DNA of 64,000 nt from Leptothermofonsia sichuanensis E412. Lineage in GTDB: Bacteria; Cyanobacteriota; Cyanobacteriia; Leptolyngbyales; Leptolyngbyaceae. The notes beneath the pieces are model-generated. The model saw only the letters and a program-made list of their open reading frames with translations. It had not been told where the DNA came from and ran no database searches. The stretch lies in assembly GCF_019891175.1 (NCBI RefSeq), contig NZ_CP072600.1, positions 6,324,001-6,388,000 on the forward strand. Reading direction: 5' to 3'. Positions within the stretch are counted from its first letter, which is position 1, and every line of letters starts with the position of its first letter. A program made the translations under genes and the position numbers. Of this stretch, positions 37,122 to 42,794 are shown piece by piece.

Positions 37122-37349
37122 TCATGCGAAGCCATTCTCCCTTTGGGGTAATTGCCGATTTCCATCACGCAGTAACTCGTCTGGTTTCGCCTGTTGTTCT
37201 ACAAACTGCCAGAGCACATCTCGGATGAGGGCTTGATATCCCTACTCTCCGGAGATTTTCCGCAATCGCTCCTTTAGTTCCGCTTCTAGTCGGATATTTA
37301 TGACCTGAATTTCCGAAGTGCTAACTTGTTTGGGTGTATTTATAACCAA
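37122..37349 (-). pseudogene. Ribbon-helix-helix (RHH) regulator with an in-frame amber codon
   Basis: Reading leftward from a TTG at 37349 the frame encodes VINTPKQVSTSEIQVINIRL, then EAELKERLRKISGE, then a TAG at 37242-37244, then GYQALIRDVLWQFVEQQ and a charged tail ending at 37122. The two halves are in the same frame and together look like a 75-residue RHH (CopG/MetJ-like) regulator: beta strand IQVINIRL, helix A, turn, helix B YQALIRDVLWQFV. As read it would be truncated to 36 residues. It is too short and too broken to appear as an ordinary ORF. Perfect palindromic sites precede it. Confidence 0.6.
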
Positions 37350-37382
37350 CGCCCTAATTTCTCTGAAAGGGTGGACAAGCCA

Positions 37383-37433
37383 ATACTACAAGTGTAGTAT
37401 GTAGACATTCAGAATTGTAATATAAATACTACA
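37383..37433. promoter_or_regulatory. ATACTACA/TGTAGTAT operator cluster upstream of the RHH gene
   Basis: ATACTACA at 37383-37390 and TGTAGTAT at 37393-37400 form an 18-bp palindrome with a 2-bp spacer, 34 bp upstream of the RHH start. A third half-site ATACTACA lies at 37426-37433. The same octamer occurs twice in the promoter upstream of the tRNA array (38788 and 38809), so one regulator may control both. Confidence 0.6.
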
Positions 37434-37727
37434 GCCTTCCATGATACGTATTCTCACCACCTCAGCCAGCGTCCATGTTCGACCCCAACATTGTTTGGGT
37501 AGAGCAGTGGCGCTGTTTGCGTTCGAGAGGACGTATCGATTTAACGGCGGTAAATCCGTCAGCGAAGGTATTGATAGCAAAGTGGCCGGGTGGCTTAATC
37601 CGGATCAACACACCAGCAGCGGGAGGTGCAGGGCAACCCTGACGCCGACATAGGGAAAAGCATATCTACTTCCCCACCCCCGCTCCTGGCTACCAGAAGC
37701 GGGGGTTATTTTTTGAGGAGAAAACTC
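37434..37727 (+). other. Structured non-coding leader before the HNH gene, with a terminator-like hairpin
   Basis: No protein frame is convincing. Several stem-loops can be drawn: ATCCGG-type pairing at 37580-37606, CAGGG-caa-CCCTG at 37628-37640, and CCCCCGCT / AGCGGGGG (37674-37681 and 37695-37702) followed by ttattttttg. The last is a terminator-like hairpin 26 bases before the HNH start codon, so the leader may work as an attenuator. No known riboswitch consensus (for example a B12 box) was recognised. Confidence 0.45.
37674..37712 (+). terminator. Terminator/attenuator-like hairpin before the HNH gene
   Basis: Eight-base perfect GC-rich arms CCCCCGCT and AGCGGGGG, then TTATTTTTT. The ribosome site gaggag of the HNH gene begins 3 bases later, so readthrough would be needed for HNH expression from any promoter upstream. 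Confidence 0.6.
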
Positions 37728-38258
37728 ATGCAGACCGAGCAGCGACAGAAGATTCCCATACTCCAAAACCAGGTTATGGTCTTCTCTAAGAACTACCTGC
37801 CCCTGGCGCGAATCAACCTTAAACGGGCAATCGTGCTCCTGGTTACTGGACAGGCGGAGACTCTGGAGTTCAGCAGCACCCAGCAATGGGAAGTCCGCTC
37901 TCCCAGCGTCGTACTACAAGTCCCAGATCACATCCGGTTGACCAGTGGTAATCCAGAGCGGCACTGGAAGGTTCCTCCAGTTAATCGTCGGGAAGTCTTT
38001 CGCCGCGACAACCACACCTGTCAGTACTGCGGCAGCACCAGGCATCTGACGCTGGATCACGTGATTCCCCGCTCAAAAGGCGGAACCCACACCTGGGACA
38101 ACGTGGTGACCGCCTGTAAGAAGTGCAATTCATGCAAAGGCGATCGCCTCTTACATGAAACCGGAATGGTACTCAAAACCAAACCCAGAGCACCCGTTCA
38201 CCCTGCCATTGCGTTCGCTGAGCAGTTCTGGAAAGAACAGCAACCTGTTGACCCCTGA
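37728..38258 (+). CDS. HNH endonuclease-family protein linked to the tRNA array
   Basis: From the ATG at 37728 (gaggag 8-13 bases upstream) the protein has 176 residues. The HNH domain covers about 88-141: zinc ligands C98-x2-C101 (TCQYCG) and C130-x2-C133 (CKKCN), the catalytic LDHVIPRSKGG with D110-H111, then HTWDNVVTACKKCNSCKGDR. The N-terminal 80 residues (NQVMVFSKNYLPLARINLKRAIVLLVTGQAE) are typical of the large cyanobacterial/plastid HNH family of unknown role. A frame extending back to 37626 runs through the leader and is not credible. Homing-like HNH genes are found beside some cyanobacterial tRNA arrays. The next gene starts 27 bp on. Confidence 0.9.
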   Translation: MQTEQRQKIPILQNQVMVFSKNYLPLARINLKRAIVLLVTGQAETLEFSSTQQWEVRSPSVVLQVPDHIRLTSGNPERHWKVPPVNRREVFRRDNHTCQYCGSTRHLTLDHVIPRSKGGTHTWDNVVTACKKCNSCKGDRLLHETGMVLKTKPRAPVHPAIAFAEQFWKEQQPVDP

Positions 38259-38285
38259 CCTCAAGCCAGAAAGGAGGCACAATCG

Positions 38286-38696
38286 ATGTTGAAGCTGAAC
38301 TACACCGACGTTGGGCTGTTCATGGAGCGAACCATGACCAACCCCGAACTGTTGATTGCCCAGCGAGTTCTCCTGGCGATGCGGTTAGGGCAAACGCTCC
38401 ATATTGAACCCGGTCGTGCCTCTTTTCTGCTACCTGCTGATATTCCTGAACTGAAAGTGCTGGAGATAGCGTTACAGCAGGAGTACGGCTCAACCGTCAC
38501 CCTCATTGCTATAGATGAGGAGTTTGTGGAAGTTGGACTGAGCGGAATCTGGATTGCCGCGGGCAAGGACGCACACGAGGGGATGTTCTTGGCGGTGCTG
38601 AGCGATTCTCTCTCAGAGACACTTCGTGAACGTACCGAGTTCTTAATCTACAAGTTGTGGCAGATGAGCCAGGTCCACATTTTCTCTCCAGCATAG
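38286..38696 (+). CDS. Small conserved cyanobacterial protein
   Basis: The 136-residue protein has a perfect ribosome site (aaaggagg, 9 bases before the ATG). It resembles a short cyanobacterial family I know only by sequence, opening MLKLxYT and followed by a FMERxxxxPELxIAxRVLLAMRLGQ block, IEPGRASFLLPADIPELKVLE, then VEVGLSGIWIAAG and ETLRERTEFLIYKLW. No signal peptide or membrane segment. Function is unknown. It is in an apparent operon with the HNH gene and directly precedes the array promoter. Confidence 0.7.
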   Translation: MLKLNYTDVGLFMERTMTNPELLIAQRVLLAMRLGQTLHIEPGRASFLLPADIPELKVLEIALQQEYGSTVTLIAIDEEFVEVGLSGIWIAAGKDAHEGMFLAVLSDSLSETLRERTEFLIYKLWQMSQVHIFSPA

Positions 38697-38710
38697 TGGG
38701 CAAATCCAGT

Positions 38711-38753
38711 GGGAGAGAGCGATACAAGTATGTTCTGACAGTCGTTCTCTCCC
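38711..38753. repeat. Hairpin between the small protein gene and the array promoter
   Basis: The arms GGGAGAGAGCGA (38711-38722) and TCGTTCTCTCCC (38742-38753) pair over 12 bases with one G-T wobble. An A-tract, not a T-tract, follows on the + strand, so it is not a canonical terminator for the upstream genes, but it would insulate the promoter that follows. Confidence 0.65.
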
Positions 38754-38767
38754 ATCTCAAAAAAAGT

Positions 38768-38816
38768 TGTAGCACCCCCTTGACATTTGTAGTATATTGT
38801 ATTATGTTTGTAGTAT
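38768..38816 (+). promoter_or_regulatory. Promoter of the tRNA array with TGTAGTAT operator half-sites
   Basis: TTGACA at 38780-38785 is a consensus -35; 17 bases later TATGTT at 38803-38808 serves as -10. TGTAGTAT occurs at 38788-38795 (between the hexamers) and at 38809-38816 (just after the -10), 21 bp apart, with a degenerate TGTAGCAC at 38768. The octamer equals the half-site of the palindrome near the broken RHH gene. A repressor spanning these would block the promoter. Confidence 0.6.
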
Positions 38817-38843
38817 AAGATGAGACACAGAGGAGCTAATCCA

Positions 38844-39038
38844 ATGAACACTCACTCCCTTACTAAAAGCAATGGTCTCTTGAAGTTCTTAGAGTTCTTA
38901 CCCACTCATGTTTCTGGCATTTCCACGCCACTTCAAGATGACTCATCAGATCAGGGAAATTCATCTTTCACTCAGTACAAGCAAAAGCGACAGAACATCC
39001 AGCAAATCTATTACCTGGAACGGCGTTGCTTCTTCTAA
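38844..39038 (+). CDS. Small ORF at the head of the tRNA array transcript
   Basis: The 64-codon frame has a good ribosome site (aggag, 8 bases before the ATG) and lies directly downstream of the array promoter. The product (MNTHSLTKSNGLLKFLEFLP then polar residues, ending YYLERRCFF) matches no family I know. It is the only translated frame between the promoter and the first tRNA, so it may be a leader peptide or a real small protein. Coding status is unproven. Confidence 0.5.
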   Translation: MNTHSLTKSNGLLKFLEFLPTHVSGISTPLQDDSSDQGNSSFTQYKQKRQNIQQIYYLERRCFF

Positions 39039-39091: not shown

Positions 39092-39188
39092 GGGGGTGTA
39101 GCTTAGTCCGGCTCAAAGCAGTCGCCTGTCGAGCGAAAGATCGTGGGTACTGCTACGCAGAAGCAAGCTACAAATCCCATCATCCCCG
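39092..39188 (+). tRNA. trnD: tRNA-Asp(GTC), T-loop carries a repeat insertion
   Basis: Acceptor gggggtg pairs with catcccc; D-stem gctt/aagc; anticodon loop ctgtcga gives GTC. The T-stem gtggg/cccat is intact, but its loop holds an extra segment 39149-39171 ending gaagcaagctac (repeat family A). First unit of the array. Confidence 0.8.
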
Positions 39189-39191
39189 TGC

Positions 39192-39284
39192 AGCCTTGTG
39201 GACGTAGCTTGCTTCCCGAAGGGTATAGAGAAGTCGTTCTGGTTCTCAGCCAGAAAGAAGCGGGTGCAACTCCCGTCAAGGCTT
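39192..39284 (+). tRNA. trnE: tRNA-Glu(CTC)-like, D-loop carries a repeat insertion
   Basis: Acceptor agccttg/caaggct is perfect; anticodon stem tctgg/ccaga with loop ttctcag reads CTC. The D-arm gac..gtc is split by the family A repeat in reverse orientation at 39203-39225. The T-loop tgcaact lacks the usual TTC. Confidence 0.55.
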
Positions 39285-39289
39285 CCATT

Positions 39290-39363
39290 GAGGATGTAAC
39301 TCAGATGGACAGAGTGCTTGTTTCCGAGGCAAGTAGTCACAGGTTCGATTCCTGTCATCCTCG
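39290..39363 (+). tRNA. trnR: tRNA-Arg(CCG)
   Basis: Acceptor gaggatg/catcctc; anticodon loop ttccgag reads CCG on stem cttgt/gcaag; T-arm acagg-ttcgatt-cctgt. No insertion. Confidence 0.75.
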
Positions 39364-39368
39364 CTCGT

Positions 39369-39446
39369 GGAAATTGGCATCACTTGCTCCGAAACCAACA
39401 AACGGACGGTTGCAGGATTGGGGTTCAATTCCCCACGTTTCCACCA
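39369..39446 (+). pseudogene. Degenerate tRNA unit, anticodon unclear
   Basis: A normal T-arm (tgggg-ttcaatt-cccca), a cgtttcc acceptor strand and an encoded acca end are present. The 5' acceptor pairs only partly, and the anticodon region (tccg...cgga around aaaccaacaaa) has no T33 and an 11-base loop. It is likely a decayed tRNA; CCA (Trp) is conceivable since Trp is missing elsewhere. Confidence 0.45.
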
Positions 39447-39449
39447 GAT

Positions 39450-39522
39450 CTCCAGGTCGCCAAGTGGGAAGGCGTTGGTCTGCAAAACCGACTATTCGTG
39501 GGTTCGATTCCCACCCTGGAGT
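39450..39522 (+). tRNA. trnC: tRNA-Cys(GCA)
   Basis: Acceptor ctccagg/cctggag; loop ctgcaaa reads GCA; T-arm gtggg-ttcgatt-cccac; CCA encoded. Confidence 0.88.
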
Positions 39523-39531
39523 CCAATCATT

Positions 39532-39603
39532 GCAGCGTCACCTAACGGCTAAGGTACTCGGCTCATAACCGAGGATATGTGGGTTCGACTCCCAACCGCT
39601 GCG
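39532..39603 (+). tRNA. trnM: tRNA-Met(CAT), first of two
   Basis: Acceptor gcagcg pairs with cgctgc; anticodon stem ctcgg/ccgag, loop ctcataa reads CAT. T-arm tggg-ttcgact-ccca. CAT could also be a lysidine-modified Ile tRNA, which sequence alone does not settle. Confidence 0.8.
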
Positions 39604-39609
39604 ACCAAT

Positions 39610-39680
39610 GCACAGATGGTGTAACGGCAGCACGGGAGCTTCCAAACCTCTTTGTCCGGGTTCAAATCCTGGTCTGTGCG
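39610..39680 (+). tRNA. trnG: tRNA-Gly(TCC), first of two
   Basis: Acceptor gcacaga/tctgtgc; D-loop taacggca; TCC in cttccaa. The anticodon stem has one extra A compared with the copy at 42003, so it may be weak. T-arm ccggg-ttcaaat-cctgg. Confidence 0.65.
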
Positions 39681-39835
39681 TTCTACGGTGTGCCCTCATC
39701 CGAGAAGCCTACATACTGGTCACTCGCCTAAACAGCGAAGTAGGTACCCTGCGGGAAGCAAGCTACGACTCCTACAGCCTCCGCCAACCCTGGAGGCTGA
39801 AAAAACAGCTTCTCAAACTTGCACGCTGTAGAAAT
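39681..39835 (+). other. Structured insert 1 in the tRNA array
   Basis: The 155-bp segment is not a tRNA. The outer arms TTCTACGGTGTGC and GCACGCTGTAGAA pair at 11 of 13 positions; the second arms GAGAAGC and GCTTCTC pair perfectly; inside are CCTAC/GTAGG pairs, AGCCTCC/GGAGGCT, and a family A repeat at 39745-39767. The motif AAGCCTACATAC near the start and AAACAGCTT near the end recur in insert 2 at 42507-42586. Confidence 0.6.
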
Positions 39836-39845
39836 CTCAAAGCAT

Positions 39846-39919
39846 GGTGCCGTAGGCAAATTGGTAAAGCCACAGGACTTTCAATCTTGTGTTTGCGGGT
39901 TCAAATCCCGTCGGCACTG
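39846..39919 (+). tRNA. trnE: tRNA-Glu(TTC)
   Basis: Acceptor ggtgccg/cggcact; D-stem ggc/gcc; anticodon loop ctttcaa reads TTC; T-arm gcggg-ttcaaat-cccgt; CCA encoded directly after. Confidence 0.85.
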
Positions 39920-39925
39920 CCAGAT

Positions 39926-40008
39926 GGGTAGGTATGCAAATGGCTGAAGCAGACTGACTGTAAATCAGTTGTCCCTGACCACTGGGGGTTCAAATCCCTC
40001 TCTACCCA
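39926..40008 (+). tRNA. trnY: tRNA-Tyr(GTA)
   Basis: Acceptor gggtagg/tctaccc; loop ctgtaaa on stem ctga/tcag reads GTA; long variable arm (tgtccctgaccactg) as expected for bacterial tRNA-Tyr. Confidence 0.88.
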
Positions 40009-40010
40009 CT

Positions 40011-40084
40011 GTGTCTGAAGCCAAAGCGATCGCGGCGCTGGTTTGTGACTCCAGTAGTAACGGGTTAAAGTCCCGTCAGACACC
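40011..40084 (+). tRNA. trnH: tRNA-His(GTG), first of two
   Basis: Acceptor gtgtctg/cagacac, discriminator C and encoded CCA. Loop ttgtgac reads GTG, with one T-T mismatch at the top of the stem. The D-loop contains a HIP1 octamer gcgatcgc. Confidence 0.75.
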
Positions 40085-40090
40085 CCAAAT

Positions 40091-40217
40091 GGAGAGTAAA
40101 TCGATCAGGCGAGCAACTTCGTTGAGCCTCGCTAACGGCGCTGTTTGCTAAACAGATGGATGAACAATTGTGGTTTCTCCTTCGGAGACGCTACGCGAAC
40201 CAGTCCACTGCTCTCCG
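40091..40217 (+). tRNA. trnS: tRNA-Ser(GCT) with insertions in D- and T-arms
   Basis: Acceptor ggagagt/gctctcc; loop ttgctaa reads GCT. The T-loop contains the family B repeat 40176-40199 (tctcc..ggagacgctacgcgaa). The D-arm is enlarged by a second hairpin (gcgag..ctcgc), making the unit 127 bases long. Confidence 0.7.
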
Positions 40218-40222
40218 CCTTT

Positions 40223-40296
40223 GAGAACGTGGTGTAACTGGATGAACACATCGGTTTACGAAACCGAAGAGTGAAGGTTCAACTCCTTCCGTTCTC
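40223..40296 (+). tRNA. trnR: tRNA-Arg(ACG)
   Basis: Acceptor gagaacg/cgttctc; stem tcggt/accga with loop ttacgaa reads ACG; T-arm gaagg-ttcaact-ccttc; CCA encoded. Confidence 0.88.
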
Positions 40297-40304
40297 GCCA
40301 ATCA

Positions 40305-40393
40305 TGGAGGTTGTCCGGCATGGACGAGGAAAGCGTCTTGAAAACGCCTGCGGGTGAAATAGACCGTCAAGAGTTCGATTCTCTTAGCCTCCG
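40305..40393 (+). tRNA. trnS: tRNA-Ser(TGA)
   Basis: Acceptor ggaggtt/agcctcc; loop cttgaaa on gcgt/acgc reads TGA; long variable arm; T-arm aagag-ttcgatt-ctctt. Confidence 0.85.
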
Positions 40394-40398
40394 TTTGT

Positions 40399-40471
40399 GG
40401 GAATGTAGCTGAGCTGGGTTTAGCGCCAGGTTGAAGCCCTGGAGACACGGGTTCGATTCCTGCCATTCCCA
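40399..40471 (+). tRNA. trnF: tRNA-Phe(GAA)
   Basis: Acceptor gggaatg/cattccc; stem ccagg/cctgg with loop ttgaagc reads GAA; T-arm cggg-ttcgatt-cctg. Confidence 0.85.
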
Positions 40472-40493
40472 TCCTTAACTTAGGGAGTTGTAT

Positions 40494-40565
40494 TGCCCCA
40501 TAGCTCAATGGCGGAGCGGGCGGCTGTTAACCGCACGGTTGCAAGTTCGACTCTTGCTGGGGCAG
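40494..40565 (+). tRNA. trnN: tRNA-Asn(GTT)
   Basis: Acceptor tgcccca/tggggca; loop ctgttaa on gcgg/ccgc reads GTT; T-arm gcaag-ttcgact-cttgc; CCA encoded. Confidence 0.9.
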
Positions 40566-40573
40566 CCATTCAT

Positions 40574-40647
40574 TGCCGAGTGGACGACATGGAAAGTCGC
40601 TGTGACTCTGAATCACGGAGATGCTGGTTCGACCCTAGCCTCGGCAT
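40574..40647 (+). tRNA. trnQ: tRNA-Gln(CTG)
   Basis: Acceptor tgccgag/ctcggca; loop ctctgaa on gtga/tcac reads CTG; CCA encoded. Confidence 0.85.
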
Positions 40648-40684
40648 CCAACCTCGCTCGCTAACGAGCGGCATTCAATCTTAT

Positions 40685-40758
40685 TGGGAAGTACGCAAAC
40701 AGGTAAAGCGACTTGACTTTGAATCAAGTGGTTGAGGGTTCGATTCCTTCCTTCCCAG
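40685..40758 (+). tRNA. trnQ: tRNA-Gln(TTG)
   Basis: Acceptor tgggaag/cttccca; stem cttga/tcaag with loop ctttgaa reads TTG; T-arm gaggg-ttcgatt-ccttc. Confidence 0.88.
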
Positions 40759-40809
40759 TCGGGGGGCATGAGAGATTACTGGGTCAAGTTCTCTATCCTC
40801 CTGTTTCTC

Positions 40810-40908
40810 ACTCCTGTAGCCCAGCGGAAGAGACGGCTGTCTCAAAACCAGTCAATGTGTGGGTTTCTCCTAACGGAGACGCTTCGCGAACAACTCCCGC
40901 CAGGAGTA
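40810..40908 (+). tRNA. trnL: tRNA-Leu(CAA), T-loop carries a repeat insertion
   Basis: Acceptor actcctg/caggagt; loop ctcaaaa reads CAA. Variable loop of about six bases is short for Leu. The family B repeat occupies 40866-40890 within the T-loop, between gtgggtt and caactccc. CCA encoded. Confidence 0.75.
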
Positions 40909-40947
40909 CCAATTGTCAATTCAAAATTTTGGCCAGCCAAAATTTTT

Positions 40948-41046
<99 letters not shown>

Positions 41047-41054
41047 CCAAGCAT

Positions 41055-41130
41055 CGGGATGTAGCTCAGCTTGGTTGAGAGTTACCGCTTTGGAAGCGGA
41101 AGGTCGTAGGTTCAAATCCTACCATCCCGA
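41055..41130 (+). tRNA. trnP: tRNA-Pro(TGG)
   Basis: Acceptor cgggatg/catcccg; loop tttggaa on ccgc/gcgg reads TGG; T-arm gtagg-ttcaaat-cctac; CCA encoded. Confidence 0.92.
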
Positions 41131-41136
41131 CCATTT

Positions 41137-41210
41137 GCCCTTGTGACGGAACTGGCAGACGTGCTGGCTTCAGAGACCAGATTTTGTGGGTTCAAATCCC
41201 ACCAGGGGTA
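41137..41210 (+). tRNA. trnL: tRNA-Leu(CAG), short variable loop
   Basis: Acceptor gcccttg/caggggt with G-T pairs; loop ttcagag reads CAG; variable loop only five bases (atttt) before T-stem gtggg. D-loop aactggcagacg is of Leu type. Confidence 0.78.
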
Positions 41211-41215
41211 CTGAT

Positions 41216-41288
41216 GCTCCTGTGGCGGAAGGGAAGACGCTCTAGACCGAGGATCTAGGTTTTGTGGGTTCGATTCCCACCAGGAGTA
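41216..41288 (+). tRNA. trnL: tRNA-Leu(GAG), short variable loop and C33
   Basis: Acceptor gctcctg/caggagt; perfect stem ctaga/tctag with loop ccgagga reads GAG with C, not T, at position 33; variable loop of five bases; CCA encoded. Confidence 0.7.
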
Positions 41289-41292
41289 CCAA

Positions 41293-41367
41293 GCACCGAA
41301 GGCGGAAGTGATCGACGCACCCACCCGATAAGTGGGCTATTAGCAAGTTTGAGTCTTGCTCGGTGTA
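41293..41367 (+). tRNA. trnI: tRNA-Ile(GAT) with C33
   Basis: Acceptor gcaccga/tcggtgt; perfect stem cccac/gtggg with loop ccgataa reads GAT, C at position 33; T-arm gcaag-tttgagt-cttgc; CCA encoded. Confidence 0.7.
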
Positions 41368-41375
41368 CCAACTAT

Positions 41376-41447
41376 CTGAGTGTGGTGCAGTGGGAGCACG
41401 TCGGTTCGGGGAACTGGAGGTCGTAGGTTCAATCCCTACCACTCAGG
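41376..41447 (+). tRNA. trnP: tRNA-Pro(GGG) with C33
   Basis: Acceptor ctgagtg/cactcag; stem tcggt/actgg with loop tcgggga reads GGG, C at position 33; T-arm gtagg-ttcaatc-cctac; CCA encoded. Confidence 0.75.
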
Positions 41448-41458
41448 CCATTTCATAT

Positions 41459-41530
41459 GGGTCGTTGGCAGAGCGTTTATGCAACCGCCTTTTAAGCGGA
41501 GAGATCCAGGTTCAACCCCTGGGCGACCCA
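41459..41530 (+). tRNA. trnK: tRNA-Lys(TTT)
   Basis: Acceptor gggtcgt/gcgaccc; loop cttttaa on ccgc/gcgg reads TTT; CCA encoded. Confidence 0.9.
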
Positions 41531-41533
41531 CCA

Positions 41534-41608
41534 GAATAATTCGGAATTGATCATTCGGAATTCGGAGTTAAAACATCAATTAGGAATTGCGGATTCCGAA
41601 TTTCTAAC
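41534..41608. other. AT-rich spacer inside the array
   Basis: The longest tRNA-free stretch in the middle of the array besides the structured inserts; it is made of partial repeats of attcggaatt / aggaattgcggattcc and pairs with itself. No tRNA, no ORF. Confidence 0.5.
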
Positions 41609-41681
41609 GGGCTGTTAGCTCAGTTGGCAGAGCAGCCGCCTCTTAAGCGGAAGTGCGTAGGTTCAAAGCCTACACAGCCCA
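41609..41681 (+). tRNA. trnK: tRNA-Lys(CTT)
   Basis: Acceptor gggctgt/acagccc; loop ctcttaa on ccgc/gcgg reads CTT; T-arm gtagg-ttcaaag-cctac; CCA encoded. Confidence 0.9.
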
Positions 41682-41687
41682 CCAAAT

Positions 41688-41761
41688 GCCCCTGTGATGC
41701 AATGGGTAGACATCGCTTGCTTAAAACAAGTGTGTTGCAGGTTCGACTCCTGTCAGGGGTA
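41688..41761 (+). tRNA. trnL: tRNA-Leu(TAA), short variable loop
   Basis: Acceptor gcccctg/caggggt; loop cttaaaa on cttg/caag reads TAA; variable loop about five bases; T-arm gcagg-ttcgact-cctgt. No intron, unlike the group I intron found in many cyanobacterial Leu(TAA) genes. Confidence 0.8.
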
Positions 41762-41763
41762 CT

Positions 41764-41838
41764 CGCGGAGATGGAGCTATGGTGCGCTCTGGGGTCTCAT
41801 AAGCCTTCACGTACCGGGTTCAAATCCCGGCTCCGCAA
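41764..41838 (+). tRNA. trnM: tRNA-Met(CAT), second
   Basis: Acceptor gcggag/ctccgc; stem ggggt/gcctt with two wobbles and loop ctcataa reads CAT; T-arm ccggg-ttcaaat-cccgg; CCA encoded. The first acceptor pair is C-A. Confidence 0.72.
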
Positions 41839-41843
41839 CCAAT

Positions 41844-41915
41844 GCAGACGTGGTGTGACTGGCAACACAGGGGCCTGGTACGCTCCCGATATGGGTTCAA
41901 TCCCCATCGTCTGAT
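41844..41915 (+). tRNA. trnT: tRNA-Thr(GGT)
   Basis: Acceptor cagacg/cgtctg; stem ggggc/gctcc with loop ctggtac reads GGT; T-arm atggg-ttcaatc-cccat; CCA encoded. Confidence 0.8.
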
Positions 41916-41923
41916 CCAGATGT

Positions 41924-41995
41924 GCTGGTGTGGCTCAACGGCAGAGCAACTGTCTTGTAAACAGTCGGTTGCAGGTTCAACTCCTGTCACCAGCC
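41924..41995 (+). tRNA. trnT: tRNA-Thr(TGT)
   Basis: Acceptor gctggtg/caccagc; stem actgt/acagt with loop cttgtaa reads TGT; CCA encoded. Confidence 0.9.
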
Positions 41996-42002
41996 CCAGA
42001 AT

Positions 42003-42073
42003 GTGGACATGGTGTAGCGGTAGCATATGAGGCTTCCAACCTCTTGGTGTGGGTTCGAGTCCCACTGTCCATA
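42003..42073 (+). tRNA. trnG: tRNA-Gly(TCC), second
   Basis: Acceptor gtggaca/tgtccat; loop cttccaa on gagg/cctc reads TCC; T-arm gtggg-ttcgagt-cccac; CCA encoded. Confidence 0.9.
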
Positions 42074-42079
42074 CCAGAC

Positions 42080-42202
42080 GCGATCGTGATGTAGCGGCGA
42101 GCATCTGTTCGCGAAGCGTGTCGCTCTGCGACAAATGCGCCACACTCAGCGCATGGGTATCTCCTTTGGAGACGCTGACGCGAATGAGTCCCATCACTCG
42201 CT
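42080..42202 (+). pseudogene. Disrupted tRNA (Gly-like) with two repeat insertions
   Basis: The D-arm tgatgtagcggcgagcat is close to that of tRNA-Gly(TCC). A family B repeat in reverse orientation (42108-42132, ttcgcgaagcg...) breaks the anticodon region, and another in forward orientation (42160-42184) lies in the T-loop of atggg..cccat. The 5' and 3' acceptor strands pair only partly (gcga/tcgc). A gccac string suggests GCC as the former anticodon, but that is a guess. Confidence 0.5.
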
Positions 42203-42207
42203 CTCGT

Positions 42208-42300
42208 AGTCCTGTAGCTCAACGGTGGAGCATCTGTCTTACAAACAGAGGGTTGCAGGTACCGCTCCGCGGAAGCAAGCTACAAATCCTGTCAGGACTA
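42208..42300 (+). tRNA. trnV: tRNA-Val(TAC), T-loop carries a repeat insertion
   Basis: Acceptor agtcctg/caggact; loop cttacaa on ctgt/acag reads TAC. The T-loop between gcagg and cctgt is extended by the family A repeat 42260-42283. CCA encoded. Confidence 0.8.
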
Positions 42301-42308
42301 CCAATTGT

Positions 42309-42381
42309 GGGAGTGTCGCCTAATGGAAAGGGCATCGATCTTCTAAATCGACTGGTGTAGGTTCAATTCCTACCACTCCTG
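42309..42381 (+). tRNA. trnR: tRNA-Arg(TCT)
   Basis: Acceptor gggagtg/cactcct; loop cttctaa on cgat/atcg reads TCT; T-arm gtagg-ttcaatt-cctac; CCA encoded. Confidence 0.88.
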
Positions 42382-42389
42382 CCATTTAT

Positions 42390-42462
42390 GGGTTCGTAGC
42401 TTAATTGGAAAAGCACCAATCTAGCTGATTGGAAGATATCGGTTCAAATCCGATCGCATCCA
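42390..42462 (+). tRNA. trnA: tRNA-Ala(AGC)-like
   Basis: Stem ccaat/attgg is perfect and loop ctagctg reads AGC, rare in bacteria. Acceptor gggttcg/cgcatcc has one mismatch. T-arm atcgg-ttcaaat-ccgat; CCA encoded. Confidence 0.65.
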
Positions 42463-42471
42463 CCACATTTT

Positions 42472-42638
42472 GGGTCTGTAGCTTGTAAGGACAGAGCACC
42501 TAGATCACTCGTGCCCCTACTGACAAAGCTTACATACAACCTTCTCTGCTAAAGAAGTCTAAACAGCTTTGTGAACTTGTACGAGTTGTGAGTGTAACTC
42601 TCACAGGGAGGCAGTCGGTTCGACTCCGACCAGATCCA
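42472..42638 (+). pseudogene. tRNA split in the anticodon arm by structured insert 2
   Basis: Acceptor gggtctg/cagatcc, D-arm gct..agc and T-arm gtcgg-ttcgact-ccgac with encoded CCA are intact. The anticodon region is replaced by an 80-base insert at 42507-42586 and a following hairpin tgtgag-tgtaact-ctcaca. The residual cctagatc suggests a GAT (Ile) tRNA, with low certainty. Confidence 0.55.
42507..42586 (+). other. Structured insert 2 in the tRNA array
   Basis: The outer arms ACTCGT and ACGAGT and inner arms GACAAAGCT and AGCTTTGTG pair, with a CTTC/GAAG hairpin at the centre. The strings AAGCTTACATAC and TAAACAGCTT match those of insert 1 (39681-39835), so the two are related. It is far too small for a group I intron. 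Confidence 0.6.
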
Positions 42639-42644
42639 CCAAAT

Positions 42645-42718
42645 GGGACCATAGCTCAACTGGCTAGAGCGCCTGTCTTGCAAACAGGAGGTTAGGGGTT
42701 CAAGTCCCCTTGGCTCCA
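42645..42718 (+). tRNA. trnA: tRNA-Ala(TGC)
   Basis: Stem cctgt/acagg with loop cttgcaa reads TGC; D-arm gctcaactggctagagc; T-arm gggg-ttcaagt-cccc. Acceptor gggacca/tggctcc has one A-C mismatch. Confidence 0.82.
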
Positions 42719-42720
42719 CT

Positions 42721-42794
42721 GTGACTGAACCCGAAGTGATGGAGGGGCTGGTTTGTGACACCAGTGTTAGCGAGTTCGACTCTCGTCAGTCACC
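42721..42794 (+). tRNA. trnH: tRNA-His(GTG), second
   Basis: Acceptor gtgactg/cagtcac with discriminator C and encoded CCA; perfect stem ctggt/accag with loop ttgtgac reads GTG. Better preserved than the first His copy. Confidence 0.88.

What the first reader, a model, noticed from the sequence alone, without database searches (positions are those of the whole stretch)
37122..38816. A shared TGTAGTAT operator links a broken RHH regulator to the tRNA array promoter
The octamer forms an 18-bp palindrome plus a third half-site upstream of the RHH gene, and occurs twice, 21 bp apart, across the -35/-10 of the array promoter. This suggests the array was a repressible unit whose repressor now carries a TAG, leaving the array possibly derepressed. 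I know of no description of a dedicated regulator for cyanobacterial tRNA arrays.
Basis: partly seen in the sequence, partly recalled or inferred. Interest (0 to 1): 0.8.

Follow-up and report, generated by a model that had tools for sequence, protein, structure and literature searches.

The report
Decayed array-borne repressor beside tRNA array
A cluster of spare tRNA genes in a cyanobacterium carries the on/off sites of a known stress repressor and, beside it, a worn-out extra copy of that repressor's gene; the main copy elsewhere in the genome looks intact, so the cluster is probably still switched off.

Summary
TrcR, a ribbon-helix-helix protein of Anabaena, represses the tRNA array by binding TGTAGTAT over the -10 box (PMC10272220). 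This genome holds an intact chromosomal TrcR gene with the published operator, so "derepressed" is unlikely.

What is new: the broken gene at 37122-37349 belongs to a separate TrcR clade, found in my searches only in Leptolyngbya-like cyanobacteria. Of 25 distinct loci of this clade, 20 sit beside a tRNA array. The usual layout is TrcR-like gene, divergent operator, small ORF, HNH endonuclease, alr0857-family gene, second operator, array. Four of 16 copies read are broken, the window's among them. Fourteen of 14 Nostocales plasmids with a close HNH relative carry an array, with no TrcR gene in the stretch fetched. Of 30 arrays chosen by tRNA sequence, 28 have the octamer upstream. Half-sites recur mostly at steps of 10-11 bp, one turn of DNA, which suggests cooperative binding.

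Best reading: the array belongs to a mobile, stress-inducible cassette whose own repressor decayed after the resident TrcR took over. TrcR binding here and the paralogue's activity are inferred, not shown.

The parts
37122..37349 (-). pseudogene of an array-linked TrcR paralogue (RHH regulator)
   Evidence: 59% identity over 51 residues to the chromosomal TrcR homologue; among 15 array-paralogue rows split from 64 canonical rows, SH-aLRT 99; lesions
37242..37244 (-). in-frame TAG at the position of an invariant Gln (Q34 of alignment A1, 10 sequences)
37383..37400 (.). 18-bp palindromic TrcR-type operator
   Evidence: the exact trio of half-sites recurs with the same spacing in 16 of 20 relatives
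37416..37433 (.). second half-site pair: TGTAATAT (1 mismatch) and exact octamer 37426-37433
37441..37653 (+). 70-aa ORF, in the position of Anabaena asr0855; weakly constrained, possible leader peptide
   Evidence: open in 16 of 16 family loci, window included, dN/dS 0.44
37676..37706 (+). intrinsic-terminator-like hairpin before the HNH gene
   Evidence: script scan: such a hairpin in 69 of 70 HNH leaders; the scan did not list it
37728..38258 (+). HNH endonuclease gene (array-linked clade)
   Evidence: Pfam HNH; 30 array-linked HNH rows together, SH-aLRT 99; dN/dS 0.07 over 8 loci
38286..38696 (+). alr0857-family gene
   Evidence: NCBIfam NF045647, 142.8 bits against cut-off 75; dN/dS 0.20 over 7 loci
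38780..38816 (+). array promoter with phased TrcR half-sites at 38788, 38798 (1 mismatch) and 38809
38820..39038 (+). 72-aa ORF between promoter and first tRNA; coding status doubtful
   Evidence: dN/dS 0.76 over 8 loci, window included
39092..42794 (+). tRNA gene array
   Evidence: 26 genes by ARAGORN; 28 matches to Rfam RF00005

Best explanation
The window holds a long tRNA array cassette that was built as a self-contained, repressible unit: a TrcR-family RHH repressor gene, a shared divergent operator, an HNH/alr0857 operon, and a second operator across the array promoter. TrcR binds TGTAGTAT half-sites spaced about one helical turn apart and blocks transcription; translational stress lowers TrcR and turns the array on. 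In this strain the cassette's own repressor has decayed, and the resident chromosomal TrcR most likely keeps the array silent. Shown here: the architecture, its recurrence, the lesions, the intact chromosomal trcR and the phasing. Shown by others in Anabaena: TrcR binding to TGTAGTAT, repression of the array, and fall of TrcR protein under translation inhibitors. Inferred: that this genome's TrcR binds these sites, cooperativity, and that the paralogue represses the same targets.
For: Published footprint and derepression in Anabaena with TGTAGTAT (PMC10272220). The chromosomal TrcR here is intact, with the published 18-bp motif upstream and with L44 and A72, the residues changed in the published BMAA-resistant mutants. 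28 of 30 arrays chosen by tRNA sequence carry the octamer in the same orientation within 600 bp upstream, 0 of 30 within 600 bp downstream; 420 permuted octamers average 0.55, the only tie being TTGTAGTA, which overlaps it. In 49 array promoters (not a blind set) 94 of 119 half-site spacings up to 36 bp are 10-11, 21-22 or 31-33 bp, and 48 of 49 have at least two half-sites. TrcR-paralogue clade of 15 rows, SH-aLRT 99; 20 of 25 such loci beside an array; dN/dS 0.22 in nine copies taken as intact. All 11 paralogue-bearing genomes also have a canonical-type match; for 4 of them (L163, L220, L221, L222) the tree confirms the type. rtcB, a published TrcR target, has the octamer about 60 bp upstream in this genome.
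Against: No expression or binding data for this organism. The comparison of the broken gene with canonical TrcR rests on 51-53 residues, and Pfam RHH_1 scores it below cut-off (E 0.085). The predicted structure of the paralogue was of low confidence (pLDDT 65) and its fold search gave no match at E 0.001, the best rows being chemokines. Nine of 54 canonical trcR loci lack the octamer, in either orientation, within 150 bp. 8 of 30 arrays also have it in the opposite orientation upstream. Two array-paralogue loci (L074, L149) have no array in reach, and 9 of 54 canonical loci adjoin an array too, so linkage is not the paralogue's alone.
Confidence: 0.75

Rival explanations
1. The array is constitutively expressed here because its only repressor is broken.
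For: The local RHH gene is clearly a pseudogene.
Against: An intact chromosomal TrcR with its operator is present; operators are retained at arrays whose local TrcR is broken (L076, L162) or not found nearby (exact octamer at 13 of 14 plasmid arrays).
Confidence: 0.1
2. The array-borne paralogue does not repress the array: it controls only its own gene and the HNH operon, or something else, and array control has always been the chromosomal TrcR's work.
For: Plasmid arrays do without it (no TrcR match in 14 fetched stretches; in the whole plasmid collection one record, Kovacikia, matched); its middle part differs from canonical TrcR.
Against: The stretch VTSIR is the same in canonical TrcR and in nine of ten aligned paralogues; divergent and array operators are the same octamer; linkage to the array holds in 20 of 25 loci.
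Confidence: 0.2
3. The shared octamers are inherited promoter sequence with no regulatory role, conserved because the whole cassette is young.
For: Many cassettes are close relatives; the octamer includes a -10-like hexamer TAGTAT.
Against: Arrays in several families share the octamer though their promoters differ elsewhere. Direct-repeat pairs exceed the reversed control in the 102 genomes with a TrcR match (95 against 17) and not in the 284 without (23 against 27); hand tally from the rows, in which one genome, G229, gives 10 of the 95. Published footprints.
Confidence: 0.04
4. The TAG is a programmed stop read through under stress, so that array tRNAs feed back on the repressor.
For: The stop lies in a gene next to a tRNA array; tRNA-Gln(CTG) is in the array.
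Against: None of the other 15 copies read has TAG there, though L162 loses its frame before that point; further lesions in the same gene; ARAGORN lists no tRNA with a CTA anticodon in the window.
Confidence: 0.01

Closest known systems
TrcR (All0854) of Anabaena sp. PCC 7120, RHH repressor of the trn operon (PMC10272220)
   Same: RHH family; binds TGTAGTAT across the array's -10 box; its own gene has a palindrome-like operator; asr0855, alr0856 (HNH) and alr0857 are up in the deletion mutant.
   Different: In Anabaena trcR is chromosomal and the array is on the delta plasmid. Here a separate TrcR clade is encoded beside the array, and this copy is broken. The main text does not contain words beginning adjacent, cooperativ or paralog; figures and supplements were not seen.
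Long tRNA arrays of cyanobacteria, e.g. the Anabaena trn operon (described in the introduction of PMC10272220; the original NAR 2021 paper is recalled, not held)
   Same: More than 20 tRNA genes in one run on one strand; in Anabaena silent until translational stress.
   Different: Chromosomal here; HNH, alr0857-family and TrcR-like genes directly upstream; tRNA-like sequences interrupted by a repeat whose exact pattern occurs nowhere else in this genome.

Membership tests
TrcR family (RHH repressor of translation genes) | Sequence homology to TrcR | tested here: met
   59% identity over 51 residues to the chromosomal homologue; groups with the array paralogues, on the other side of one branch from 64 canonical rows. 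Anabaena's own TrcR sequence was not fetched; the link to it is the operator, neighbourhood and residues 44 and 72.
TrcR family (RHH repressor of translation genes) | Operator like ATACTACACTTGTATTAC before the gene | tested here: met
   ATACTACAAGTGTAGTAT (37383-37400) before the pseudogene; the exact published motif before the chromosomal gene
TrcR family (RHH repressor of translation genes) | Intact reading frame of the window copy | tested here: not met
   TAG, missing ATG, missing C-terminal domain: a pseudogene of this family, not a working member
TrcR family (RHH repressor of translation genes) | RHH fold | tested here: inconclusive
   Pfam RHH_1 E 0.085, below cut-off; NikR at E 0.11; model pLDDT 65 with two adjacent helices, no PDB match at E 0.001
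TrcR family (RHH repressor of translation genes) | DNA binding and repression | not testable with these tools
   needs EMSA, footprinting and expression data
TrcR-controlled tRNA array | TGTAGTAT overlapping or next to the array promoter | tested here: met
   38788 and 38809; 28 of 30 arrays chosen by tRNA sequence
TrcR-controlled tRNA array | Silent in normal growth, induced by translation inhibitors | not testable with these tools
   reported for Anabaena

The most novel reading that the evidence does not exclude
Long tRNA arrays of Leptolyngbya-like cyanobacteria are mobile, self-silencing stress cassettes that travel with their own TrcR-type repressor plus an HNH nuclease and an alr0857-family protein. 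After arrival the resident TrcR takes over through the same helically phased operators and the travelling repressor is free to decay, as in this window: domestication caught midway.
Probability: 0.5. Interest if true: 0.65.

Novelty: new variant of a known kind. Interest (0 to 1): 0.5.

Why it matters
It extends the one characterised case (TrcR on the Anabaena plasmid array) to a recurring, testable anatomy: half-sites one turn apart, an HNH/alr0857 neighbourhood and, in one lineage, a second repressor gene carried by the array itself. That could explain how an array able to disturb translation moves between genomes without harming a new host. It also gives HNH and alr0857-family genes a place in the translational stress response.

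Tried and rejected
Rejected: derepression of the array (intact chromosomal TrcR). Rejected: programmed read-through of the TAG (the other copies lack it; further lesions). Rejected: the 55-aa frame at 37475-37642 as a gene (in-frame stops in relatives, dN/dS 0.77); the other frame, 37441-37653, is the open one. Its constraint is weak outside the family too: dN/dS 0.61 in 10 of 11 plasmid leaders examined and 0.69 in 10 canonical leaders chosen out of 35.

Tried without result: viral contigs (patterns matched but no relative confirmed) and phages for array-type TrcR, although the TrcR paper names homologues in two Nodularia phages; Rfam on the HNH leader, nothing in that stretch at E 0.1; structure prediction and fold search, uninformative. 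Antitermination by the AGCGGGAGG block was tested by shuffling: only 14 of 69 leaders reached p 0.02, so it is left as a lead. A first hairpin alignment failed through bad anchoring and was redone, where the stem was chosen for best pairing, so its counts lean towards pairing.

Caveats on counts: the 30 arrays come from my reading of the listed multi-tRNA hits; 34 loci were put in, 4 had no cluster of four or more tRNAs and were dropped (L255, L264, L273, L274); 13 of the loci had been fetched earlier through TrcR or octamer searches, though one search lists each array independently. The 49 promoters are not blind. L328 (117 against 114 bits) was left out of the 25. One search used two short peptide patterns and is not exhaustive. 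L153 has a frameshift before a conserved internal Met and is counted neither as intact nor as broken. Some of the 54 canonical loci are cut short by contig ends, so the counts of neighbours are lower bounds. The trees are quick searches without bootstrap.

Not found in print: a TrcR paralogue beside tRNA arrays, or array-linked HNH (searches; open-licence PubMed Central papers only; listings and abstract openings seen, except PMC10272220).

Full report
WHAT WAS CHECKED. The five octamers are present as described and cluster far beyond chance, although the word itself is common in the genome (59 copies against 82 of the reversed word). The RHH reading frame is 37122-37349 on the minus strand. 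It carries TAG at 37244-37242. Against its relatives it also lacks the ATG (ATA at 37343-37341), the C-terminal domain and two residues of the stretch that in RHH proteins generally contacts DNA (that last point is recalled). It is a pseudogene with several lesions, not a single-base sequencing error.

THE KNOWN SYSTEM. Wang et al. 2023 (PMC10272220; I read the abstract, the introduction, the first of four parts of the Results, two further Results sub-sections, the Discussion and searched passages) show that the RHH protein TrcR of Anabaena represses the plasmid-borne trn array. A sequence TGTAGTAT overlaps the -10 box and is protected in footprints. TrcR is autoregulated through ATACTACACTTGTATTAC. 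Genes raised in the deletion mutant include rtcB, two HNH endonuclease genes (all8564, alr0856), asr0855 and alr0857.

THIS GENOME. The genome is one contig of 6.43 Mb. A search with the read-through RHH protein finds four matches at E 1: the window copy, an intact homologue at C1:4842820 (59% identity) and two weak ones. The intact homologue has the exact published motif before it and Leu44 and Ala72, the residues changed in the published BMAA-resistant mutants; loss of DNA binding was shown for L44P. Other octamer sites here lie about 60 bp before rtcB and, as a perfect palindrome, at a locus with an alr0857-family homologue (L080). About half of the genome's octamers lie inside long ORFs, so most sites are probably not operators. 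A working TrcR regulon is likely present, and the array is likely repressed.

RECURRENCE. In 386 genomes of the phylum, 102 have a TrcR match. In the family, 41 of 42 do. In that family a second, diverged TrcR type occurs; I read 16 copies including the window: 11 that look intact, 4 broken (window, L076, L154, L162) and one uncertain (L153). Fifteen of them stand apart from 64 canonical rows in the tree (SH-aLRT 99; L162 was too short to enter). Twelve of the 16 adjoin a tRNA array. A scan of genome contigs gave 27 loci: 20 clearly of this type, one ambiguous, six canonical; 16 of the 20 and none of the six adjoin an array. Without duplicates that is 20 of 25. Of the rest, L148, L154 and L315 run into contig ends on the array side (L315 with two tRNAs), and L074 and L149 (Kovacikia minuta plasmid pA) have no array in reach. 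The exact operator trio has the same spacing in 16 of the 20. In L155 the trio and the array remain although no TrcR, HNH or alr0857 match was found.

CANONICAL LOCI AND PLASMIDS. In 54 genera outside the family, one genome per genus, the canonical trcR has the octamer (either orientation) within 150 bp in 45, an HNH match nearby in 31, an alr0857-family match in 40, and an array of four or more tRNAs within about 9.5 kb, or up to the contig end, in 9. On plasmids, 113 records match the HNH protein. The 14 Nostocales records at 78.7-84.3% identity were fetched. All 14 have an array directly downstream, 13 have the exact octamer before it, and none of the fetched stretches has a TrcR match. Array-linked HNH genes, plasmid and family together, form one group of 30 rows (99).

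OPERATOR GEOMETRY. In an array sample found by tRNA sequence, 28 of 30 have the octamer in the same orientation within 600 bp upstream and none within 600 bp downstream; 8 also have it in the opposite orientation upstream; 420 permuted octamers average 0.55. The two misses are L256 (a copy in the opposite orientation only) and L261 (327 bp to the contig end). Across 49 array promoters 94 of 119 half-site spacings up to 36 bp are 10-11, 21-22 or 31-33 bp; four permuted words gave 0, 0, 0 and 1 pairs. That places the sites on one face of the helix. The window's pair 21 bp apart has a one-mismatch half-site between them. Cooperative binding is inferred from this.

ORIGIN. A repeat, GGAGACGCTNCGCGAAC, occurs four times in the whole genome, all inside or just past the array, and by my reading interrupts tRNA-like sequences there. 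In five related genomes all nine copies lie in or within 300 bp of arrays, while it is common in some genomes of Nostoc's family (e.g. G153 83, G338 22, G042 20; these were chosen because they had matched). Exceptions: G422 has 21 copies and none in its array locus, G413 has an array and no copy, and the single copy of G289 was not looked at. This suggests, without proving, that array DNA moved between lineages.

CONCLUSION. The finding is real and is a variant of a published system. The new part is an array-borne TrcR clade and its cassette; in this window the local repressor is dead and the resident one probably acts.

Noticed in passing
window 37560-37710: Between operator and HNH gene there is a leader: an asr0855-like ORF that ends in a hairpin (its fourth pair is A-T in 29, G-C in 16 and G-T in 5 of 50 distinct leaders, with the stem picked for pairing), then a terminator-like hairpin in 69 of 70 loci. 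It may be an attenuator that senses translation.
   Followed up: partly
window 40184, 40875, 41013, 42894: The only four exact copies in the genome of the repeat GGAGACGCTNCGCGAAC, all in or just past the tRNA array, some inside tRNA-like sequences.
   Followed up: partly
L116, L132, L133: TrcR-type direct repeats lie upstream of ORFs that I recognise, from recall and without a family search, as RNA 2'-phosphotransferase (L116) and RtcB (L132, L133), RNA repair genes.
   Followed up: no
L027 (own genome C1:3018151-3018167): A tandem octamer pair, pointing the other way, lies about 67 bp before the first start codon of a class I aminoacyl-tRNA synthetase ORF.
   Followed up: no
window 38820-39038: A 72-aa ORF between array promoter and first tRNA, found in 8 loci, window included, but weakly constrained (dN/dS 0.76).
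   Followed up: partly
L155 7438-7860: An array in G060 keeps both operators although no match to the TrcR-like, HNH or alr0857 proteins lies between them.
   Followed up: no
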